Positions 6,371 through 14,662 of a stretch of DNA of 64,000 bases are shown here, one piece after another. The position numbers were made by a program, and so were the translations under genes. This DNA comes from Marinicella marina (GTDB lineage: Bacteria; Pseudomonadota; Gammaproteobacteria; Xanthomonadales; Marinicellaceae), in the NCBI RefSeq assembly GCF_030065545.1, contig NZ_JASJNC010000002.1, positions 1-64,000 of the forward strand. The letters are read 5' to 3'. The stretch's first letter is position 1. Every line of letters starts with the position of its first letter. A model generated the notes under the pieces. The model saw nothing but the letters and a program-made list of their open reading frames with translations, did not search any database and was not told the DNA's origin.

Positions 6371-9235
6371 ATGCAGACTTCTGAACTTTGGCAACAAGCT
6401 TGTGAAATATACATGGGGTTGTCTGAGCTAGATAAAAAACACGCACTGGAAAAGATTCAAAAGTTAAAACAATCAACTTCTGAAAAGACAAAAATAGATG
6501 TGTTTAAGCTGGTTGAGCAGATGTTCAGTAACGATGAATTGGTCACTCATTTATTAGCACCTGAGTCGATTTTCGATAGTCCGTTCAATGATGAAATTAA
6601 TATACCGGCCCTCAGAGCAGGTGACATTTTAGATCAATACACCATTACTGAACAAATTGGTAAGGGTGGCATGTCATCGGTTTACCTAGCAGAAAGAAGT
6701 GACGCCAATGAACAAAAGCCAGTGGCTGTTAAAGTATTTGATAACATTCGAGCTTCAAATAAACTCATCAACCACTTCAAAGCAGAACAGGCTATTTTAT
6801 CGAAACTGAATCACCCCAATATTATCTCAATGCATTATGGCAGTGTCGACCAAAACGGTCTGCCATTTATGGTGATGGATTATGTTGAGAGTGCCAGCAC
6901 GATTGACCAATATGTCGCAGCCAATAAACTTAAAACGCAAGCTATAGTCAAGCTTATTCAATGCGTCAGCGAAGCTTTGGCATATGCTCACGGACATTTG
7001 GTTGTTCACAGAGATATTAAGCCCAGTAATTTATTGATTGATGCCAATGGCGTTTTACAGGTAGTTGACTTTGGCATCGCTCAATCCTTAGACAATAAAG
7101 GCACAGAACAAGGCACAACAACATTGATCGCTTTGACTCCTGGATATGCAGCCCCAGAACAAATCAATAATCAATCCATCAACGTCCAATCAGACGTGTT
7201 TTCATTAGGCGCTGTATTACTCAGTTTGCTGGCAAAACAACCACCCCTGCCGACAGATCGCATGATCAAAGGTTGTCAAACTGACGATGCCTATATCGGT
7301 CAGTTATTAAAAAGGCTTAATCTCAATTCTGATTTGAAAAACATCATCAACAAAGCGCTACAGAATGATCCCAAAAGGCGCTACTTAACCATGCAAGCAT
7401 TGGTAGATGATTTGAGTGCCTGGCTGGATAAAAAGACCGTATCAGCCACCCCAGATTCATTGGGCTACCGTTTAAAAAAATTCAGTCAGCGTCGGCCAGC
7501 TGTCATGGCCTCAACACTGACGCTGTTCATCAGTCTGTTTTTGGCGTTGACAGCGATGATGTGGCAAGTACAAAAGACCCAAAAGGAGGCTGAAAAAGTC
7601 AATCAAGTAAAAAACTTTATGCTGAACACCTTCTCGGTTACCGATCCTGATGTAAAGCAAGGTGAGGAGGTAACCGCCACTGAATTACTCAACGTGGCCC
7701 TGAGAGAAATTCATCCTGATACAGATGATGAGCTGAAGGCAGAGTTACTGCAATCCATTGGGACTGCTTACGGTAATCTGGGCAATTATCCAAAAGCAGT
7801 GAAAGTGTTATCAGAAGCCAACAACATTGACAGCAATGACGTTAACATTCAAACAGCCTTGTTAAAAAACCTTCTGGCAGAACAACAGTTAGAAAAAGTT
7901 GCAAGTTTGACAGAAAGAATCGAAAAAAATGATGGTTTATCACCAATTAACAAGGCCTTACTTCTGCAAGCCAAAGCCACTTTGGCTTCATCTGATAAAA
8001 AGTTTAACGATGCTGAAAAACTATACTTAGAGGCCATAAAGTTTTGGCGAAAAATGGATGACATATACGGTCTTGCACAAGCCAGAAGGGAGTATGCGAC
8101 GGTACTGGATTTGCATGCCAAAACCCCTGAAGCTCTGAAAGAGGTCAATGAAATCCTGATAGAAATAGAGGGCATTATTCCGGAGAGTCACTCAGTGTAT
8201 TTAAAAACACTTTATCTGAAAGGGTTTTTATTAACCGCATTGGGGCAATTTGAGTTGGCTCAAGATATTTTTATACCGTTACAACAAAAAACAAAAAAGT
8301 TTTTGGGAGAGAAACACCCCCTATACACCAACATTTTAATGAACCGGATCAATGTGAATCGAGGAATCGGTCAAATTGAGGAAGCCGATGCGTTGGCAGT
8401 GAAAGCGCAAACAATAATTACCAACCTGTATGATGCTGACCACTTCAACATCGGAAACTTGGCTCAAATCAGGGCGACTTTGTCAATGATGCGTGGTGAT
8501 TTTGCACAGGCCGCCATGTTTTTAAAAGAAGCTTCAAGAATTTATCAGATTAATTTCGGGGTTGAGAACCAGAGCTATCTGGTTGCACAAACAGATTTAG
8601 CAAATATGTTGAATCGTTTGGGTAATTACCAAGAAGCCAAAAAAATCATCGAGGCAGTTTATTCAACACAATTAAAATTGGTGGGAAAGTCCCACCGTGA
8701 TACTTTCGCAGCTGAATCTCAACTTGGGTTAATACTTTCAAACCTCAAACAACACGATGATGCCATATCGGTTCAGTTAAGATCATTGGAATCAGCGAGA
8801 GAACAGCTCGGTGAATCCAACCCACTGTTTCTCAGCCACCTTTTTGGACTTGGCAAGACTTATCAAGCTGCCAATTTGCACCAGCAAGCTGTAGTTATAT
8901 TTCAGGAAATTTATGACAAAGAACTTCTGAACGAAAACGACCAACGGCAAGTACCATTTAAAAAAAGTTTTGCGAGTTCCTTGTCAGAATTGAATCAGCA
9001 TCAACAAGCCATCACTTTATCTGAGGAAATGGTTGATCAAACAAAAACAATTTTCGGAATAAATAGCCAACAAGACTTTCAAAACCGAATTTTCCTGGTT
9101 GAGCAACTTCTTAAAGCAAAACAAAAAGAAAAAGCGAGGGGGTTGTGGCCAGAAATTAAATCATACTTCACTACCAACAAGAACCAGGAAATGTCAGAAG
9201 TAATAGTTGAAATCGAAAATAAAATCAATGATTAG
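6371..9235 (+). CDS. Membrane-anchored Ser/Thr protein kinase with C-terminal TPR domain
   Basis: 954 residues. The kinase domain (about 90-352) carries the P-loop GKGGMSSVY, catalytic Lys121 in VAVKVF, HRDIKPSN (213-220), DFGIA (233-237) and APE (261-263), so it should be active. A single transmembrane helix follows at about 378-397, and the remaining ~550 residues are TPR-like helical repeats (for example AYGNLGNYPKAVKVL, ANMLNRLGNYQEAKKII). The layout suggests a cytosolic kinase and an exported TPR sensor or scaffold. It converges on the sigma-factor gene with only 5 bp between stops; kinase/TPR and ECF sigma genes often sit together, so a shared pathway is likely but inferred. Confidence 0.9.
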   Translation: MQTSELWQQACEIYMGLSELDKKHALEKIQKLKQSTSEKTKIDVFKLVEQMFSNDELVTHLLAPESIFDSPFNDEINIPALRAGDILDQYTITEQIGKGGMSSVYLAERSDANEQKPVAVKVFDNIRASNKLINHFKAEQAILSKLNHPNIISMHYGSVDQNGLPFMVMDYVESASTIDQYVAANKLKTQAIVKLIQCVSEALAYAHGHLVVHRDIKPSNLLIDANGVLQVVDFGIAQSLDNKGTEQGTTTLIALTPGYAAPEQINNQSINVQSDVFSLGAVLLSLLAKQPPLPTDRMIKGCQTDDAYIGQLLKRLNLNSDLKNIINKALQNDPKRRYLTMQALVDDLSAWLDKKTVSATPDSLGYRLKKFSQRRPAVMASTLTLFISLFLALTAMMWQVQKTQKEAEKVNQVKNFMLNTFSVTDPDVKQGEEVTATELLNVALREIHPDTDDELKAELLQSIGTAYGNLGNYPKAVKVLSEANNIDSNDVNIQTALLKNLLAEQQLEKVASLTERIEKNDGLSPINKALLLQAKATLASSDKKFNDAEKLYLEAIKFWRKMDDIYGLAQARREYATVLDLHAKTPEALKEVNEILIEIEGIIPESHSVYLKTLYLKGFLLTALGQFELAQDIFIPLQQKTKKFLGEKHPLYTNILMNRINVNRGIGQIEEADALAVKAQTIITNLYDADHFNIGNLAQIRATLSMMRGDFAQAAMFLKEASRIYQINFGVENQSYLVAQTDLANMLNRLGNYQEAKKIIEAVYSTQLKLVGKSHRDTFAAESQLGLILSNLKQHDDAISVQLRSLESAREQLGESNPLFLSHLFGLGKTYQAANLHQQAVVIFQEIYDKELLNENDQRQVPFKKSFASSLSELNQHQQAITLSEEMVDQTKTIFGINSQQDFQNRIFLVEQLLKAKQKEKARGLWPEIKSYFTTNKNQEMSEVIVEIENKIND

Positions 9236-11906: not shown

Positions 11907-12134
11907 TCACCATCGGCTTTTCCACTGTTTTAGGCGTTGTTTTTTCCAACAACGCTGATTTTTATAGAACCTCCAGTTGTAGGTCTCATAACCATGTGGG
12001 AAACAGAATGAACAACCAGATTCTTCACCCAGAGTAATTCGGCGCACGAATACGCCTGATACTTTATGGGGTAAATCTGCCCAGCCAGCATCGTTCTTTC
12101 CATACGCCTTGATAAGGCAATTTTCTCTTTTCAT
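11907..12134 (-). CDS. Small Cys/Trp/basic-rich protein of unknown function, downstream of slipin
   Basis: 75 residues, strongly basic. A very good ribosome site (AAGGAGATCAC) sits directly before ATG 12134, arguing for a real gene. Its core is GCSFCFPHGYETYNW followed by RCWKKQRLKQWK: a C-x2-C pair, a His and many aromatics, suggesting a nucleic-acid-binding or metal-binding small protein. It lies after the slipin terminator on the same strand. I do not recognise the family with certainty. Confidence 0.65.
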   Translation of the reverse strand: MKRENCLIKAYGKNDAGWADLPHKVSGVFVRRITLGEESGCSFCFPHGYETYNWRFYKNQRCWKKQRLKQWKSRW

Positions 12135-12206: not shown

Positions 12207-12239
12207 TAAAAAACCCACAGCATCAGAGACACTGTGGGT
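12207..12239 (-). terminator. Rho-independent terminator of the slipin gene
   Basis: On the minus strand ACCCACAG pairs with CTGTGGGT (8 bp, 11-nt loop) followed by TTTTTTA. It begins 20 bp after the slipin stop. Confidence 0.85.
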
Positions 12240-12258
12240 CTGTTTTACCCTTCAGGCA

Positions 12259-13392
12259 TCAAACATTTAATTTGATGCCTTCTTTGATAACGCCTTCCAT
12301 GCCGCCGAAAACAGTTAAGGTTTCGACTTTGTCGGCGATTTTTTCCAAAGTTTCCAACTCTTTCAAACGTCTCAAAGTGTCGCTTTGATCCATCAACTTT
12401 GCGGTGTTCAACAAAGAACGGGTCGCAGCAGTTTCTTCACGGCGTTTGATGATGTTGGCTTTGGCGGCTTTTTCCGCTTCAACCACTTGGTTCAAGATGG
12501 TTTTCATCTCGCCAGGCAAGATGATGTCTTTGACACCCACTTCAACCAAGGTCAAACCGTAGCCAGCCACTTTTTTGGCCACGAAGCCTTGGACAAAAGT
12601 ATCAATGGCTTCTTTGTCGGCTATCAAGTTGTCCAAGACTTTGGTACCGATGGCTTTTCTCAAAGCCAACTGCAACGCGTTGTACAAGAATTCTTTGTAG
12701 TTCGACAATTCAGTCAAGGCCACCACTGCATCGTTGACTTTAAAAGTGGCAGACAAATTAACCCTTAAGCTCACTTTGTCTTTGGTCAAGATTTCTTGAC
12801 CGGCCACTTCTATGGTCTGGGCGCGGGTCTCCACGACCTCCAAGTTGACTGATTGGTTGTAGTTCCAAAAACCGTATTTACCGGCCTTCAAAGTACGCAC
12901 CAACTGACCATCGATGAATAACAAACCCACTTGTTGGTTGGTCACTTCTTTGATCACCAAGCCTGCAGACAACACCGAGGCTTTGGCTGCTTTGGCCAAC
13001 ACTTTCATGTCTTTGGCAGACACTTCAATCTGCTCGGTGACATTGATGCGTCTGACTTCCACTTGAGCCGCGGTGTTCCAAAACCACTTCTCAGACTGAG
13101 GTTTAATCAAGTCATTGAATTGGCCATCTACATAAATCAAAGCCACCTCATTTTCGTCGGTGCTGATGACTGTGTAGAATTGTTCGCACAAGTTAGTTTT
13201 GTTTCTCAACAACACTTTGACGTCTTTCTGGGTGATCTCAGTGGCGGTGATATCAAATAAGCGCACTTTGATGCGGTTACCGAAATCCCAAAACTGGTGT
13301 ACACCCGCAGTTAAAACGGCAGTTAATTGACGATCACGAAATAACAAACCACGTTCGTTATCAGCAATCACTATTCTTTTTCTAAAAATCAT
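12259..13392 (-). CDS. Slipin-family SPFH/band-7 protein
   Basis: 377 residues from ATG 13392 (AGGATAT upstream). The first ~200 residues hold two similar segments with GLLFRDRQL...GVHQFW and GLLFIDGQLV...GKYGFW. The SPFH domain follows (VETRAQTIEVAGQEILTKDKVSLRVNL, KALGTKV-like AIGTKVLDNLI, GLTLVEVGVKDIILPGEM) and a coiled C terminus (VEAEKAAKANIIKRREETAATRSL). There is no clear transmembrane helix. This longer slipin type is one I associate, from memory, with predicted RNA-repair gene neighbourhoods; here it lies directly downstream of tRNA-like and structured RNA sequence on the same strand. Its own biochemical role is unknown. Confidence 0.85.
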   Translation of the reverse strand: MIFRKRIVIADNERGLLFRDRQLTAVLTAGVHQFWDFGNRIKVRLFDITATEITQKDVKVLLRNKTNLCEQFYTVISTDENEVALIYVDGQFNDLIKPQSEKWFWNTAAQVEVRRINVTEQIEVSAKDMKVLAKAAKASVLSAGLVIKEVTNQQVGLLFIDGQLVRTLKAGKYGFWNYNQSVNLEVVETRAQTIEVAGQEILTKDKVSLRVNLSATFKVNDAVVALTELSNYKEFLYNALQLALRKAIGTKVLDNLIADKEAIDTFVQGFVAKKVAGYGLTLVEVGVKDIILPGEMKTILNQVVEAEKAAKANIIKRREETAATRSLLNTAKLMDQSDTLRRLKELETLEKIADKVETLTVFGGMEGVIKEGIKLNV

Positions 13393-13529
13393 TTTCTTAT
13401 ATCCTGTGCTACTTATCACCAACCCAAGTTGATAACTTCACACTGCTAGTAAAACTCAGTCATTAAAACCTCGTTGTTGTTGTTAATATCATGTCCAAAT
13501 GGACGCTTAAAATTACTTCCTCATCACCT

Positions 13530-13990
13530 GCCAACTGCCTCATCAAGCCATCCTGATAGCGGCCATGCTTCGCTCTCTCGCCTTCCGCACCAACGCAAGC
13601 CATCCTGCGTTGGCTTTGATTTACCCAAATCTGAGCTCATCAAATAAAAGTCAGTCTCACGACCGCCCAGTGGTCAAGGGTGGGTTGTTCTGGTTCCACC
13701 AGATCATGAAGTCAGTCAAATCCTTGTGTGTTCGATACGTCCTAAAAGGTTTGTATCCTGACTTCAATCCTGGTTTCTCAATCCGAACCCAAGGGCTCGA
13801 AAAGCAGACCAATGCACCCATGGCGCGAAAACATGCTGCACAAGCCAAGCTTTCCTGGGAGGCCGTTGTGAGTCGACGGCCTTGTCGTTGCTACATGTCG
13901 GTAGCAATGGGCTTCTCGCCCACTTCACTGAAACTGACCTGTGATGTTTAAAGACGTCACGCGTCTCTCATTAGATAGGGCTCTCGCCTT
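13530..13990 (-). ncRNA. Candidate long structured noncoding RNA between tRNA-like genes and slipin
   Basis: This stretch has no convincing gene but many perfect short inverted repeats. Arms (plus coordinates) include 13590-13597/13606-13613, 13690-13694/13698-13702, 13707-13714/13759-13766, 13861-13866/13876-13881, 13890-13894/13901-13905, 13909-13912/13918-13921 and 13952-13956/13962-13966. Two minus-strand hairpins show the same 8-nt loop GGATGGCT on different stems. The density of nested hairpins is unlike the neighbours and fits a folded RNA rather than coding DNA. Strand is inferred from the flanking tRNA-like genes and slipin, all on the minus strand. The family is not recognised. Confidence 0.5.
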
Positions 13991-14003
13991 GGTGCCTTGC
14001 GGC

Positions 14004-14081
14004 TGGGTTTTTGAACAGGAGTCGAACCTGCGACCTACAAATTAATAATTTGTTGCTCTAACCAATCTGAGCTATCAAAAC
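14004..14081 (-). tRNA. tRNA-Asn-like gene with AUU anticodon
   Basis: The minus strand folds as a cloverleaf: acceptor GTTTTGA/TCAAAAA (6 of 7 pairs, G1-A72 mismatch), D arm GCTC...GAGC, anticodon stem ACAAA/TTTGT with loop TTATTAA, variable loop AGGTC, T arm GCAGG-TTCGACT-CCTGT, then C and encoded CCA. The loop gives anticodon AUU, which would read AAU (Asn). Bacterial tRNA-Asn normally has GUU, so this is unusual. The 1-72 mismatch and AT-rich stems suggest a degenerate or specialised tRNA. Confidence 0.65.
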
Positions 14082-14152
14082 TTTAGAGAAGGAATTGAAC
14101 CTTCGACAAGCAAAATCAAAGTCTGCTGCTCTACCAACTGAGCTATCTAAGT
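14081..14152 (-). tRNA. tRNA-Gln-like gene (UUG), abutting and overlapping the next tRNA
   Basis: D arm GCTC AGTTGGTA GAGC, anticodon stem GCAGA/TTTGC with loop CTTTGAT (anticodon UUG), variable loop TTGTC and T arm GAAGG-TTCAATT-CCTTC are all clear. The acceptor ACTTAGA/TCTAAAG pairs at about 5 of 7 positions. Its last acceptor base is also base 1 of the following tRNA-like gene, leaving no discriminator base or CCA. A normal tRNA cannot be cut cleanly from this layout without end repair, so it may be a tRNA-like element or a decayed gene. Confidence 0.55.
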
Positions 14153-14283
14153 ATCCAATCACTTGGTATACACACCAACACAGTTGGCTGCACCGGCCTG
14201 CCATACAGAGACAGGACCACAAAGTCATTTGGATTCGGGGTTAACTGATGATCATCAGAACAAGCAGTTAAAATTTTTCAGGC

Positions 14284-14364
14284 AAAAAAAAGCCTGTCTG
14301 AATGACCAGACAGGCTTTACGTAAAAGATTCCTGAAAGGCCAATCAATGCCTTTCAAGATTTTT
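14284..14364 (-). ncRNA. Candidate ~80-nt small RNA ending in a strong intrinsic terminator
   Basis: An extended -10 element lies just upstream (14372-14380, minus strand). The predicted transcript has one hairpin TGAAAGGC/GCCTTTCA (14333-14340/14349-14356), then a terminator with a 10-bp stem (14291-14300/14307-14316) and eight T residues. No coding gene lies upstream that would need this terminator. No homology is known to me. Confidence 0.45.
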
Positions 14365-14371
14365 GAAGGGC

Positions 14372-14380
14372 ATTATATCA
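14372..14380 (-). promoter_or_regulatory. Extended -10 promoter element
   Basis: On the minus strand TGATATAAT fits TGnTATAAT. No good -35 is present at normal spacing, as is usual for extended -10 promoters. It would start a transcript near 14364. Confidence 0.45.
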
Positions 14381-14505
14381 ACGTCATGAGCGCACGCGAG
14401 TCACAACTCGGGTGGCTGTTTTGTTTTCTTATGTTGAAATAAAGTGTATTCATCATTGTTATTTGTTTCGTTGGTGGGCACTGCCCAATTTCATAATGGC
14501 TGCGC

Positions 14506-14533
14506 ATTCTACGCCTGTGATTTTCAGAGTCAA
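14506..14533 (-). promoter_or_regulatory. Strong sigma-70 promoter with GC-rich discriminator (stable-RNA type)
   Basis: On the minus strand TTGACT (-35), a 16-nt spacer and TAGAAT (-10) are followed by GCGCAGCC, a GC-rich discriminator like those of rRNA/tRNA promoters. The upstream stretch 14534-14575 is AT-rich with A-tracts resembling an UP element. It would transcribe toward the tRNA-like genes and slipin, though the terminator at 14284-14316 lies between. Confidence 0.55.
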
Positions 14534-14662
14534 GCATTTATTAACATATTTTTAACATTTTGATGTTTTTTACTGATCTGTTGTGTCCTTGAGCCTTTGA
14601 GGCAGAACCGCCTTTGCTTGTGGGTGAGGCCGTTTAACCAGACCTGGACTCATATTTTCAGG

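What the first reader, a model, noticed from the sequence alone, without database searches (positions are those of the whole stretch)
12259..14540. Slipin / structured RNA / tRNA-like locus driven from a stable-RNA-type promoter
On the minus strand a promoter with GC-rich discriminator, a terminated small RNA, two odd tRNA-like genes, ~460 nt of hairpin-dense non-coding DNA, a slipin gene, its terminator and a small Cys/Trp-rich protein lie in order. From memory, slipins occur in predicted RNA-repair neighbourhoods, and tRNA-like RNAs there act as ligands. RtcB or RtcR is not present in the window, so this may be a distinct RNA-handling system.
Basis: partly seen in the sequence, partly recalled or inferred. 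Interest (0 to 1): 0.72.

Follow-up and report, generated by a model that had tools for sequence, protein, structure and literature searches.

The report
Slipin gene with variable tRNA-like RNAs
A bacterial scaffold-protein gene is preceded by two tRNA-like RNAs and a large folded RNA; the same layout recurs in distant bacteria, often beside RNA-repair genes, and the tRNA-likes keep their shape while their anticodons keep changing, as if they imitate the targets of tRNA-cutting enzymes.

Summary
On the minus strand lie a sigma70-type promoter, a leader with short ORF and terminator, two tRNA-like genes (TLS1, TLS2), a 357-nt RNA and a slipin. The RNA covaries: 52 of 91 pairs show two-sided changes in 12 Marinicellaceae loci, this one included. 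The layout is widespread: 125 of 126 slipin loci with enough upstream sequence carry a tRNA T-arm on the sense strand, 105 as a tandem pair (controls 8 and 13, tandem 0 and 0). rtcB follows slipin in 73 of 117 loci. The window's lineage is derived: no RtcR, RtcA or RlaP hit in its genome, and RtcB 75 kb away behind its own tRNA-like gene. New here: TLS2 keeps its body but its anticodon turns over fast (28 triplets in 91 loci; different in 21 of 41 pairs with slipins at least 95% identical). Best reading: an SPFH scaffold with tRNA-mimic RNAs that absorb or sense tRNA cleavage; this function is inferred. The kind is known (from memory, Burroughs & Aravind 2016 named SPFH/Band-7 modules with a 'novel tRNA-like molecule'; paper not held). 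Anticodon turnover, the 357-nt RNA and the RtcR-free form look new; relaxed constraint remains a rival for the turnover.

The parts
14506..14533 (-). sigma70-type promoter TTGACT-16-TAGAAT, followed by discriminator GCGCAGCC (14498-14505)
   Evidence: a TTGAC-type promoter element followed by a leader ORF was found in 12 of 15 Marinicellaceae loci printed (not in L107, L109, L110)
14373..14453 (-). leader ORF, 26 aa (MNTLYFNIRKQNSHPSCDSRALMTLI*); forms of 24-32 aa in the other 11 loci, most with YFNI or a similar motif
14330..14382 (-). two mutually exclusive leader hairpins (14382-14339, or 14359-14330 if the 5' strand is unavailable)
   Evidence: RNA folding of stretches that include the terminator, z -5.4 and -5.8 for the whole stretch
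14289..14318 (-). intrinsic terminator of the leader
   Evidence: 13 pairs plus T run
14152..14236 (-). structured 5' domain before TLS1 (GTCTCTGTATGGCA motif)
   Evidence: single-sequence fold z -2.0; 9 of 19 predicted pairs with two-sided changes in 13 of 15 loci tried (L051 and L107 lacked the search motif), 1-2 when slid
14080..14152 (-). TLS1, tRNA-like (Gln-like, TTG)
   Evidence: ARAGORN, Rfam tRNA 55.2 bits; 5 of 7 acceptor pairs
14004..14081 (-). TLS2, tRNA-like (Asn-like, ATT, an A34 anticodon)
   Evidence: ARAGORN, Rfam tRNA 54.9 bits; 6 of 7 acceptor pairs
13651..14007 (-). structured non-coding RNA, closed domain about 13651-13937; no Rfam family
13446..13463 (-). tiny ORF MTEFY* with upstream ACGAGG
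   Evidence: MTEF[YTN]* or MTEF* in 15 of 15 loci printed
12259..13392 (-). slipin, SPFH/Band_7 protein, 377 aa
   Evidence: Pfam Band_7 E 4e-31; full-strength matches in 10 of 18 same-genus genomes, own included
12211..12241 (-). terminator after slipin
   Evidence: 14 pairs

Best explanation
This is a slipin/tRNA-like RNA module of the RNA-repair type, in an RtcR-free form. Shown by sequence: an SPFH protein, two tandem tRNA-like RNAs, a large structured RNA, and a leader with short ORF, alternative hairpins and terminator, conserved together in the family. Inferred: the tRNA-like RNAs are non-decoding mimics that stand in for tRNAs as targets of tRNA-cleaving nucleases, so that cleavage is absorbed or sensed while the SPFH oligomer holds them (and, where present, RtcB, RtcA and RlaP rejoin or rebuild broken ends). 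Different anticodons would serve against different nucleases. Inferred further: in relatives RtcR, which senses cut tRNA halves, controls the unit through sigma54; in Marinicella that control is replaced by a leader whose terminator responds to ribosome progress on the leader ORF.
For: Layout: T-arm in 125 of 126 loci, tandem pair in 105 (controls 8 and 13 of 126, tandem 0 in both). Repair genes adjacent in relatives. TLS2, 91 loci: 28 triplets; 78 of 91 with at least one trait unlike a working tRNA; 4-5 acceptor pairs in 66 of 91. Anticodon turnover: 40, 29, 25 parsimony steps at positions 34, 35, 36 against mean 18.6 (sd 6.9, max 39) at slipin third codon positions; 42 of 93 anticodon sites differ in 31 disjoint close pairs, 19.2 expected at the slipin fourfold rate. 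In 7 genomes of one genus, three bases in that loop are the only bases over about 960 nt that separate two alleles (besides two gap columns at the alignment edge), so no pairing partner co-varies in that stretch. Housekeeping tRNA-Asn(GTT) and tRNA-Gln(TTG) exist elsewhere in the genome. Literature: RtcR CARF binds tRNA 5' halves with cyclic phosphate, and YrlA's tRNA-like domain was proposed as a competitive inhibitor of the nuclease (PMC7790460, passages); in Anabaena slipin, rtcB and a tRNA operon share one repressor (PMC10272220, passages).
Against: No nuclease, cleavage or binding was observed. Unpaired position 59 of TLS2 changes about as fast as the anticodon (34 steps; 16 of 31 disjoint pairs), so relaxed constraint can explain the turnover without selection. 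YrlA was found not to be cut in Salmonella (PMC7790460). Three of ten same-genus genomes with slipin show no RtcB hit (G001, G008, G014), so repair by RtcB is not needed there; in G014 (as in G013) slipin itself is interrupted. The leader's direction of control is not determined: the terminator folds in both hairpin states.
Confidence: 0.4

Rival explanations
1. The tRNA-like RNAs are structural handles only: the SPFH scaffold or a repair enzyme binds their elbow (D- and T-arms), and the anticodon loop is free to drift.
For: D- and T-arms are conserved and the loop changes about as fast as unpaired position 59. Acceptor stems are degenerate.
Against: The loop is not random: A37 in 79 of 91, U36-A37 in 56 of 91, A34 (other than ACG) in only 9 of 91, though these counts are not phylogenetically independent. 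Part of the arm conservation is forced by the search pattern.
Confidence: 0.35
2. They are working reserve tRNAs that replace cleaved ones, as proposed for stress-induced tRNA operons.
For: True-looking tRNA arrays lie near slipin/RtcB in L077, L091 and several Phycisphaerae. Anabaena trn operon is co-regulated with slipin and rtcB (PMC10272220). Some TLS2 carry a CCA (27 of 98, loosely counted and before the 7 mis-parsed loci were dropped).
Against: 32 of 91 lack U33, 9 have A34 other than ACG, 3 have anti-stop triplets, only 20 of 91 have 6-7 acceptor pairs. The window's TLS2 has A34.
Confidence: 0.12
3. The RNAs are a cis regulator of slipin (tRNA-mimic leader acting on transcription or translation), not a separate product. 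This need not exclude the other readings.
For: Fixed position upstream of slipin on the same strand; leader ORF, alternative hairpins, terminator and tiny ORF. In the same genome rtcB also has a terminator and then a tRNA-like gene before it.
Against: No co-varying partner for the anticodon loop within about 960 nt. The large RNA is a closed domain that ends over 250 nt before slipin.
Confidence: 0.25

Closest known systems
SPFH/Band-7 plus tRNA-like RNA modules of RNA-repair systems (Burroughs & Aravind 2016, NAR; abstract recalled, paper not held)
   Same: SPFH protein with cognate tRNA-like RNA beside RtcB/RtcR/RlaP in relatives
   Different: Window's genome has no RtcR, RtcA or RlaP hit and its RtcB is elsewhere; two TLS, a 357-nt covarying RNA and a translation-type leader are present; the listings of my searches show no report of anticodon turnover, but the 2016 paper itself was not seen
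rsr-yrlBA-rtcBA operon of Salmonella (PMC7790460, passages)
   Same: scaffold protein plus tRNA-mimic RNA with RNA-repair enzymes
   Different: Ro60 and Y RNA in place of slipin and full cloverleaf TLS; YrlA only sub-threshold here (31.8 bits, cut-off 69)
Anabaena TrcR regulon: trn operon, rtcB, slipin alr0740 (PMC10272220, passages)
   Same: slipin, rtcB and a tRNA operon under common stress control
   Different: separate loci under a repressor; whether a tRNA-like gene precedes alr0740 was not tested
PaFlo8 in the rtc locus of Pseudomonas aeruginosa PA14 (PMC13086221, one passage)
   Same: SPFH gene embedded with rtcA, rtcB, rtcR
   Different: the word tRNA does not occur in that paper's main text (term search)

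Membership tests
RtcR-regulated slipin/RtcB(A) RNA-repair operon | SPFH/slipin protein of this clade | tested here: met
   relatives at about 35-89% identity
RtcR-regulated slipin/RtcB(A) RNA-repair operon | tRNA-like RNA directly upstream of slipin | tested here: met
RtcR-regulated slipin/RtcB(A) RNA-repair operon | rtcB in the same operon | tested here: not met
   RtcB only at C12:89200, about 75 kb away; no rtcB in about 9 kb after slipin in relatives L051, L053, L054
RtcR-regulated slipin/RtcB(A) RNA-repair operon | RtcR in the genome | tested here: not met
   PF06956 in 0 of 18 genus genomes
RtcR-regulated slipin/RtcB(A) RNA-repair operon | sigma54 promoter | tested here: inconclusive
   My loose pattern hit 1 of 143 loci (L083) and missed even the rtcR-flanked Pseudoalteromonas loci, so it has no power; a sigma70-type element is present
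Y RNA / YrlA (RF02553) | Rfam gathering score 69 | tested here: not met
   31.8 bits
Functional tRNA | 7-bp acceptor, U33, used anticodon, CCA | tested here: inconclusive
   Window: TLS1 5 of 7 and TLS2 6 of 7 acceptor pairs; TLS2 anticodon ATT (A34); cloverleaf scores above Rfam cut-off
Functional tRNA | aminoacylated, used in decoding | not testable with these tools
   needs acid-gel northern or tRNA sequencing
Major vault protein-like cage | N-terminal repeats with the MVP repeat fold | tested here: not met
   full model aligns to MVP over 405-462 columns, gaps included (first at rank 18, E 2.8e-10, rmsd about 12), but the N-terminal 188 aa alone give no MVP among the 50 listed of 678 and nothing at E <= 0.001
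Stomatin/SPFH oligomers | SPFH core and coiled coil by sequence and predicted fold | tested here: met

The most novel reading that the evidence does not exclude
The TLS are exchangeable baits: bacteria keep a scaffold-bound tRNA body and swap its anticodon loop quickly, under diversifying selection, to match the tRNA-cleaving toxins and phage-defence nucleases they meet; cutting the bait spares real tRNAs or switches on the repair unit. Marinicella runs this without RtcR, and in some species without RtcB.
Probability: 0.27. Interest if true: 0.9.

Novelty: new variant of a known kind. Interest (0 to 1): 0.68.

Why it matters
What the slipin and the tRNA-like RNAs of bacterial RNA-repair units do is, as far as I know, open. 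A conserved tRNA body with a fast-changing anticodon gives a direct, cheap test: swap the anticodon and ask which nuclease the cell then tolerates or senses. A related stretch with slipin and a nucleotidyltransferase (RlaP in the 3 E. coli copies tested) is present in 1617 of 5426 complete E. coli genomes, so part of the question can be asked in a laboratory species. The 357-nt RNA is a candidate new RNA family.

Tried and rejected
Vault-like cage: the full slipin model matched major vault protein over 405-462 alignment columns, gaps included, but the N-terminal part alone did not, so I dropped it to a weak lead. Kissing or specifier partner for the anticodon loop: none co-varied over about 960 nt in 7 genomes of one genus. 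Rfam for the large RNA: only chance-level hits besides tRNA and sub-threshold YrlA over the TLS. Sequence homologues of the large RNA outside Marinicellaceae: none by nhmmer among the 143 loci; partial matches in L107, L109, L110 and their duplicates. Phage-borne copies: no match at E <= 1e-20 in 50,697 phage records. Link of slipin and RtcB presence within the genus: both in 7, slipin only 3, RtcB only 3, neither 5 of 18, not a clear association. Sigma54 sites: my pattern scan had no power.

Limits of the counts: of 143 slipin loci, 13 were dropped as duplicates between collections and 4 more for short upstream sequence. From, G350, G218, G137, G095, G085 and the second piece of G010 were not fetched. 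The TLS2 parse demands GCTC/GAGC and TTCRA, so conservation at those positions is by construction; 32 of 130 non-redundant loci gave no such parse. On checking, 7 of the 98 parsed elements were not the last T-arm before slipin (L012, L064, L081, L086, L139, L146, L173; TLS1 or a neighbouring tRNA in most), so I dropped them and recomputed; the figures in this report are those (91 loci, 90 in the tree because L011's slipin is cut by its contig).
Full report
What is there. Reading the minus strand from 14540 downwards: promoter TTGACT-16-TAGAAT with a GC-rich discriminator; a leader with a 26-aa ORF, two mutually exclusive hairpins and a strong terminator at 14318-14289; a structured 5' domain; TLS1 (14080-14152) and TLS2 (14004-14081), both called by ARAGORN and above Rfam's tRNA cut-off; a 357-nt non-coding stretch 13651-14007; a tiny ORF MTEFY* just before the gene; slipin 12259-13392; a terminator. 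The 75-aa Cys/Trp-rich ORF behind it has no match in the other loci held at that point. The window's genome belongs to Marinicella by its nearest named relatives (inference).

The large RNA is real. Aligned from 12 Marinicellaceae loci including the window's own (A3), RNAalifold gives 91 pairs. 95.0% of cells pair (shuffled mean 83.9, sd 0.6), 52 pairs show changes on both sides (24.8, sd 3.0) and the covariation score is 0.437 (0.211, sd 0.012), with 0 of 500 shuffles reaching any of these; sliding partners by one column drops the score to 0.08-0.10. The structure was derived from these sequences, which favours it over slid versions, and the shuffle keeps no phylogeny; still, 13 of 14 helices contain at least one two-sided change. 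No Rfam family matches beyond chance. By sequence it is found full length only in the loci that built the model and their duplicates, with partial matches in L107, L109, L110 and theirs.

The layout is conserved far beyond the genus. I collected 143 slipin loci. After removing 13 duplicates and 4 with short upstream sequence, 125 of 126 have a tRNA T-arm on the sense strand within 1500 nt before slipin, and 105 of 126 have a pair 55-95 nt apart. The same scan finds 8 of 126 on the antisense strand and 13 of 126 in the 1500 nt from the slipin start, with no tandem pair in either; other SPFH genes give 3 of 15 (that upstream stretch may include some of their own coding sequence). By record title the loci include gammaproteobacteria, Planctomycetota, Bacteroidota and others. 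The one miss, L097, has only a partial slipin.

RNA-repair genes sit beside it in relatives. rtcB starts 0.9-2.4 kb after the slipin start in 73 of 117 loci with more than 2.4 kb of sequence, and lies 0.7-6.8 kb upstream in 10 more, six of these only 25-34% identical to the window genome's RtcB. rtcA or rtcR are near slipin in fewer loci. In Pseudoalteromonas the order is rtcR (divergent), TLS, slipin, rtcB, rtcA, rlaP, with a CCA-adding/poly(A) polymerase-type gene before rlaP in L076. Citrobacter has rtcR, leader, slipin, rlaP. In E. coli a 2.5-kb stretch with slipin and a nucleotidyltransferase (RlaP in the 3 copies tested) matches over 80% or more of its length in 1617 of 5426 genomes, beside yjbD in the rows listed and between yjbD and lysC in the one region annotated in full. 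Its leader matches in 1624 of 5426 and has a T-arm-like hairpin and a TGGCACGCTTCTCGCA sigma54-like site (the reading as sigma54 is mine), but ARAGORN finds no tRNA there or in Citrobacter, so the enterobacterial form is a weaker case.

The window's lineage is different. RtcR (PF06956) has a hit in 0 of 18 same-genus genomes, RtcA (PF01137) in 0 of 18, RlaP in 2 of 18 and not in G000. RtcB is in 10 of 18, slipin in 10 of 18 (full-strength matches), both in 7. G000's RtcB lies about 75 kb away and has, just upstream, a terminator and then a tRNA-Leu(TAG)-like gene with a short variable loop, which suggests the same plan in two places. G001, G008 (88% complete) and G014 have slipin but no RtcB hit; in G014 and G013 slipin is interrupted.

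The anticodon turns over fast. A strict class-I parse succeeds in 98 of 130 loci; 7 of these were not the last T-arm and were dropped. The remaining 91 show 28 different triplets: GTT 20, CAT 13, no other above 5. U33 is missing in 32 of 91, acceptor stems have 4-5 pairs in 66 and 6-7 in 20, and 78 of 91 have at least one trait unlike a working tRNA. On the slipin tree (90 loci) positions 34, 35, 36 need 40, 29 and 25 steps; slipin third codon positions average 18.6 (sd 6.9, maximum 39 of 278 sites). Among pairs with slipin identity of 95% or more, the triplet differs in 21 of 41 while the D- and T-arm body differs by 1.8%. In 31 disjoint close pairs, 42 of 93 anticodon sites differ against 19.2 expected at the slipin fourfold rate (all). 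In seven genomes of one genus, three bases in this loop are the only bases in about 960 nt that separate the two alleles, apart from two gap columns at the alignment edge. Against a selective reading: unpaired position 59 changes as fast (34 steps; 16 of 31 disjoint pairs), and codon bias may slow fourfold sites. So the data show that the anticodon is not held to any decoding identity; they do not by themselves show diversifying selection.

Within Marinicella TLS1 also changes class and anticodon: Gln-, Met-, Phe-, Leu- and Ser-like forms occur in loci whose slipins are 80-88% identical to the window's. Housekeeping tRNA-Asn(GTT) and tRNA-Gln(TTG) exist elsewhere in G000 (which saw 30 of the 41 tRNA matches), so the TLS are extra.

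Slipin protein. Its closest solved relatives by sequence are stomatins, then QmcA and HflK. An AlphaFold model (pLDDT 79.6, pTM 0.57) matches stomatin, HflK/C and prohibitin, and major vault protein over 405-462 columns (the aligned range is not given); the N-terminal part modelled alone (pLDDT 87) does not match vault protein in the list shown. I read it as an SPFH oligomer with extra N-terminal beta domains.

How it may work. Established by others: RtcR binds tRNA 5' halves with cyclic phosphate and activates repair genes (PMC7790460, passages); RtcA and RtcB also act on RtcR (PMC9650030, start of abstract in the listing); slipin, rtcB and a tRNA operon share a repressor in Anabaena (PMC10272220, passages). 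My inference: TLS mimic tRNAs toward cleaving enzymes, held by the slipin scaffold; cutting them protects tRNAs or signals damage. In Marinicella the signal would be read through a leader whose terminator depends on ribosome progress. The bait step, the scaffold step and the leader step are all untested. I give 0.95 that this is a conserved slipin/tRNA-like RNA module of RNA-repair descent and 0.4 for the mechanism as stated; the readings listed are not mutually exclusive.

What is known. From memory, the abstract of Burroughs & Aravind 2016 speaks of scaffolding SPFH/Band-7 modules with 'a novel tRNA-like molecule'; the paper is not held, and later papers that I looked into add nothing on this point in the passages I saw. 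P. aeruginosa PaFlo8 lies in the rtc locus (PMC13086221, one passage). Searches for slipin, SPFH or band-7 with RtcB, tRNA, tRNA-like or RNA repair, and for anticodon nuclease with decoy, listed no paper on anticodon turnover in such RNAs (titles and abstract starts only); the library holds open-licence papers only.

Noticed in passing
L058 about 6837-7103 and L010 about 2398-2647: In two same-genus genomes (G014, G013) slipin is interrupted at or next to the same conserved site (ILPGE|MKTILNQ) by an element of roughly 250-270 nt (ends not determined) with inverted repeats that folds on itself (about -100 and -79 kcal/mol), 77% alike over 194 nt; both gene halves stay open. MITE-like insertion, or something removed from the RNA?
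   Followed up: partly
L125 8916-8992 (G000:C12:88915-88991): The only RtcB hit of the genome is preceded by a terminator and a tRNA-Leu(TAG)-like gene with short variable loop and CCA; G004 has one as well.
   Followed up: partly
L077, L091, L082, L085, L087, L096: Arrays of 5 to 13 tRNA genes lie near slipin and RtcB, and a tRNA-His follows slipin in L082, L083, L085, L087, L096; L091 also has an RF-1-domain protein next to RtcB.
   Followed up: partly
L186, L189-L191: E. coli slipin-RlaP stretch in 1617 of 5426 genomes with a conserved leader that carries no annotated RNA in the regions viewed; one strain has a zeta toxin family gene next to it.
   Followed up: partly
L177-L184, about 600-700 nt before slipin: Repeated ACATTATC / GATAATGT palindromes before the TLS in one Xanthomonadales genus look like an operator for an unknown regulator.
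   Followed up: no
L003, L007, L008 between the large RNA and slipin: Extra repeated or palindromic sequence (in L003 repeats with CACTTCGA..GAGCTCAGTGA-like palindromes) lengthens the spacer there.
   Followed up: no
window 11907-12134: 75-aa Cys/Trp-rich ORF without family hits or matches in the other loci held.
   Followed up: partly
L007 and L011: Two Marinicella loci with otherwise different sequence share the same TLS1 and TLS2 anticodon arms (Leu TAG, Met CAT), which hints at exchange or convergence of the arms.
   Followed up: no
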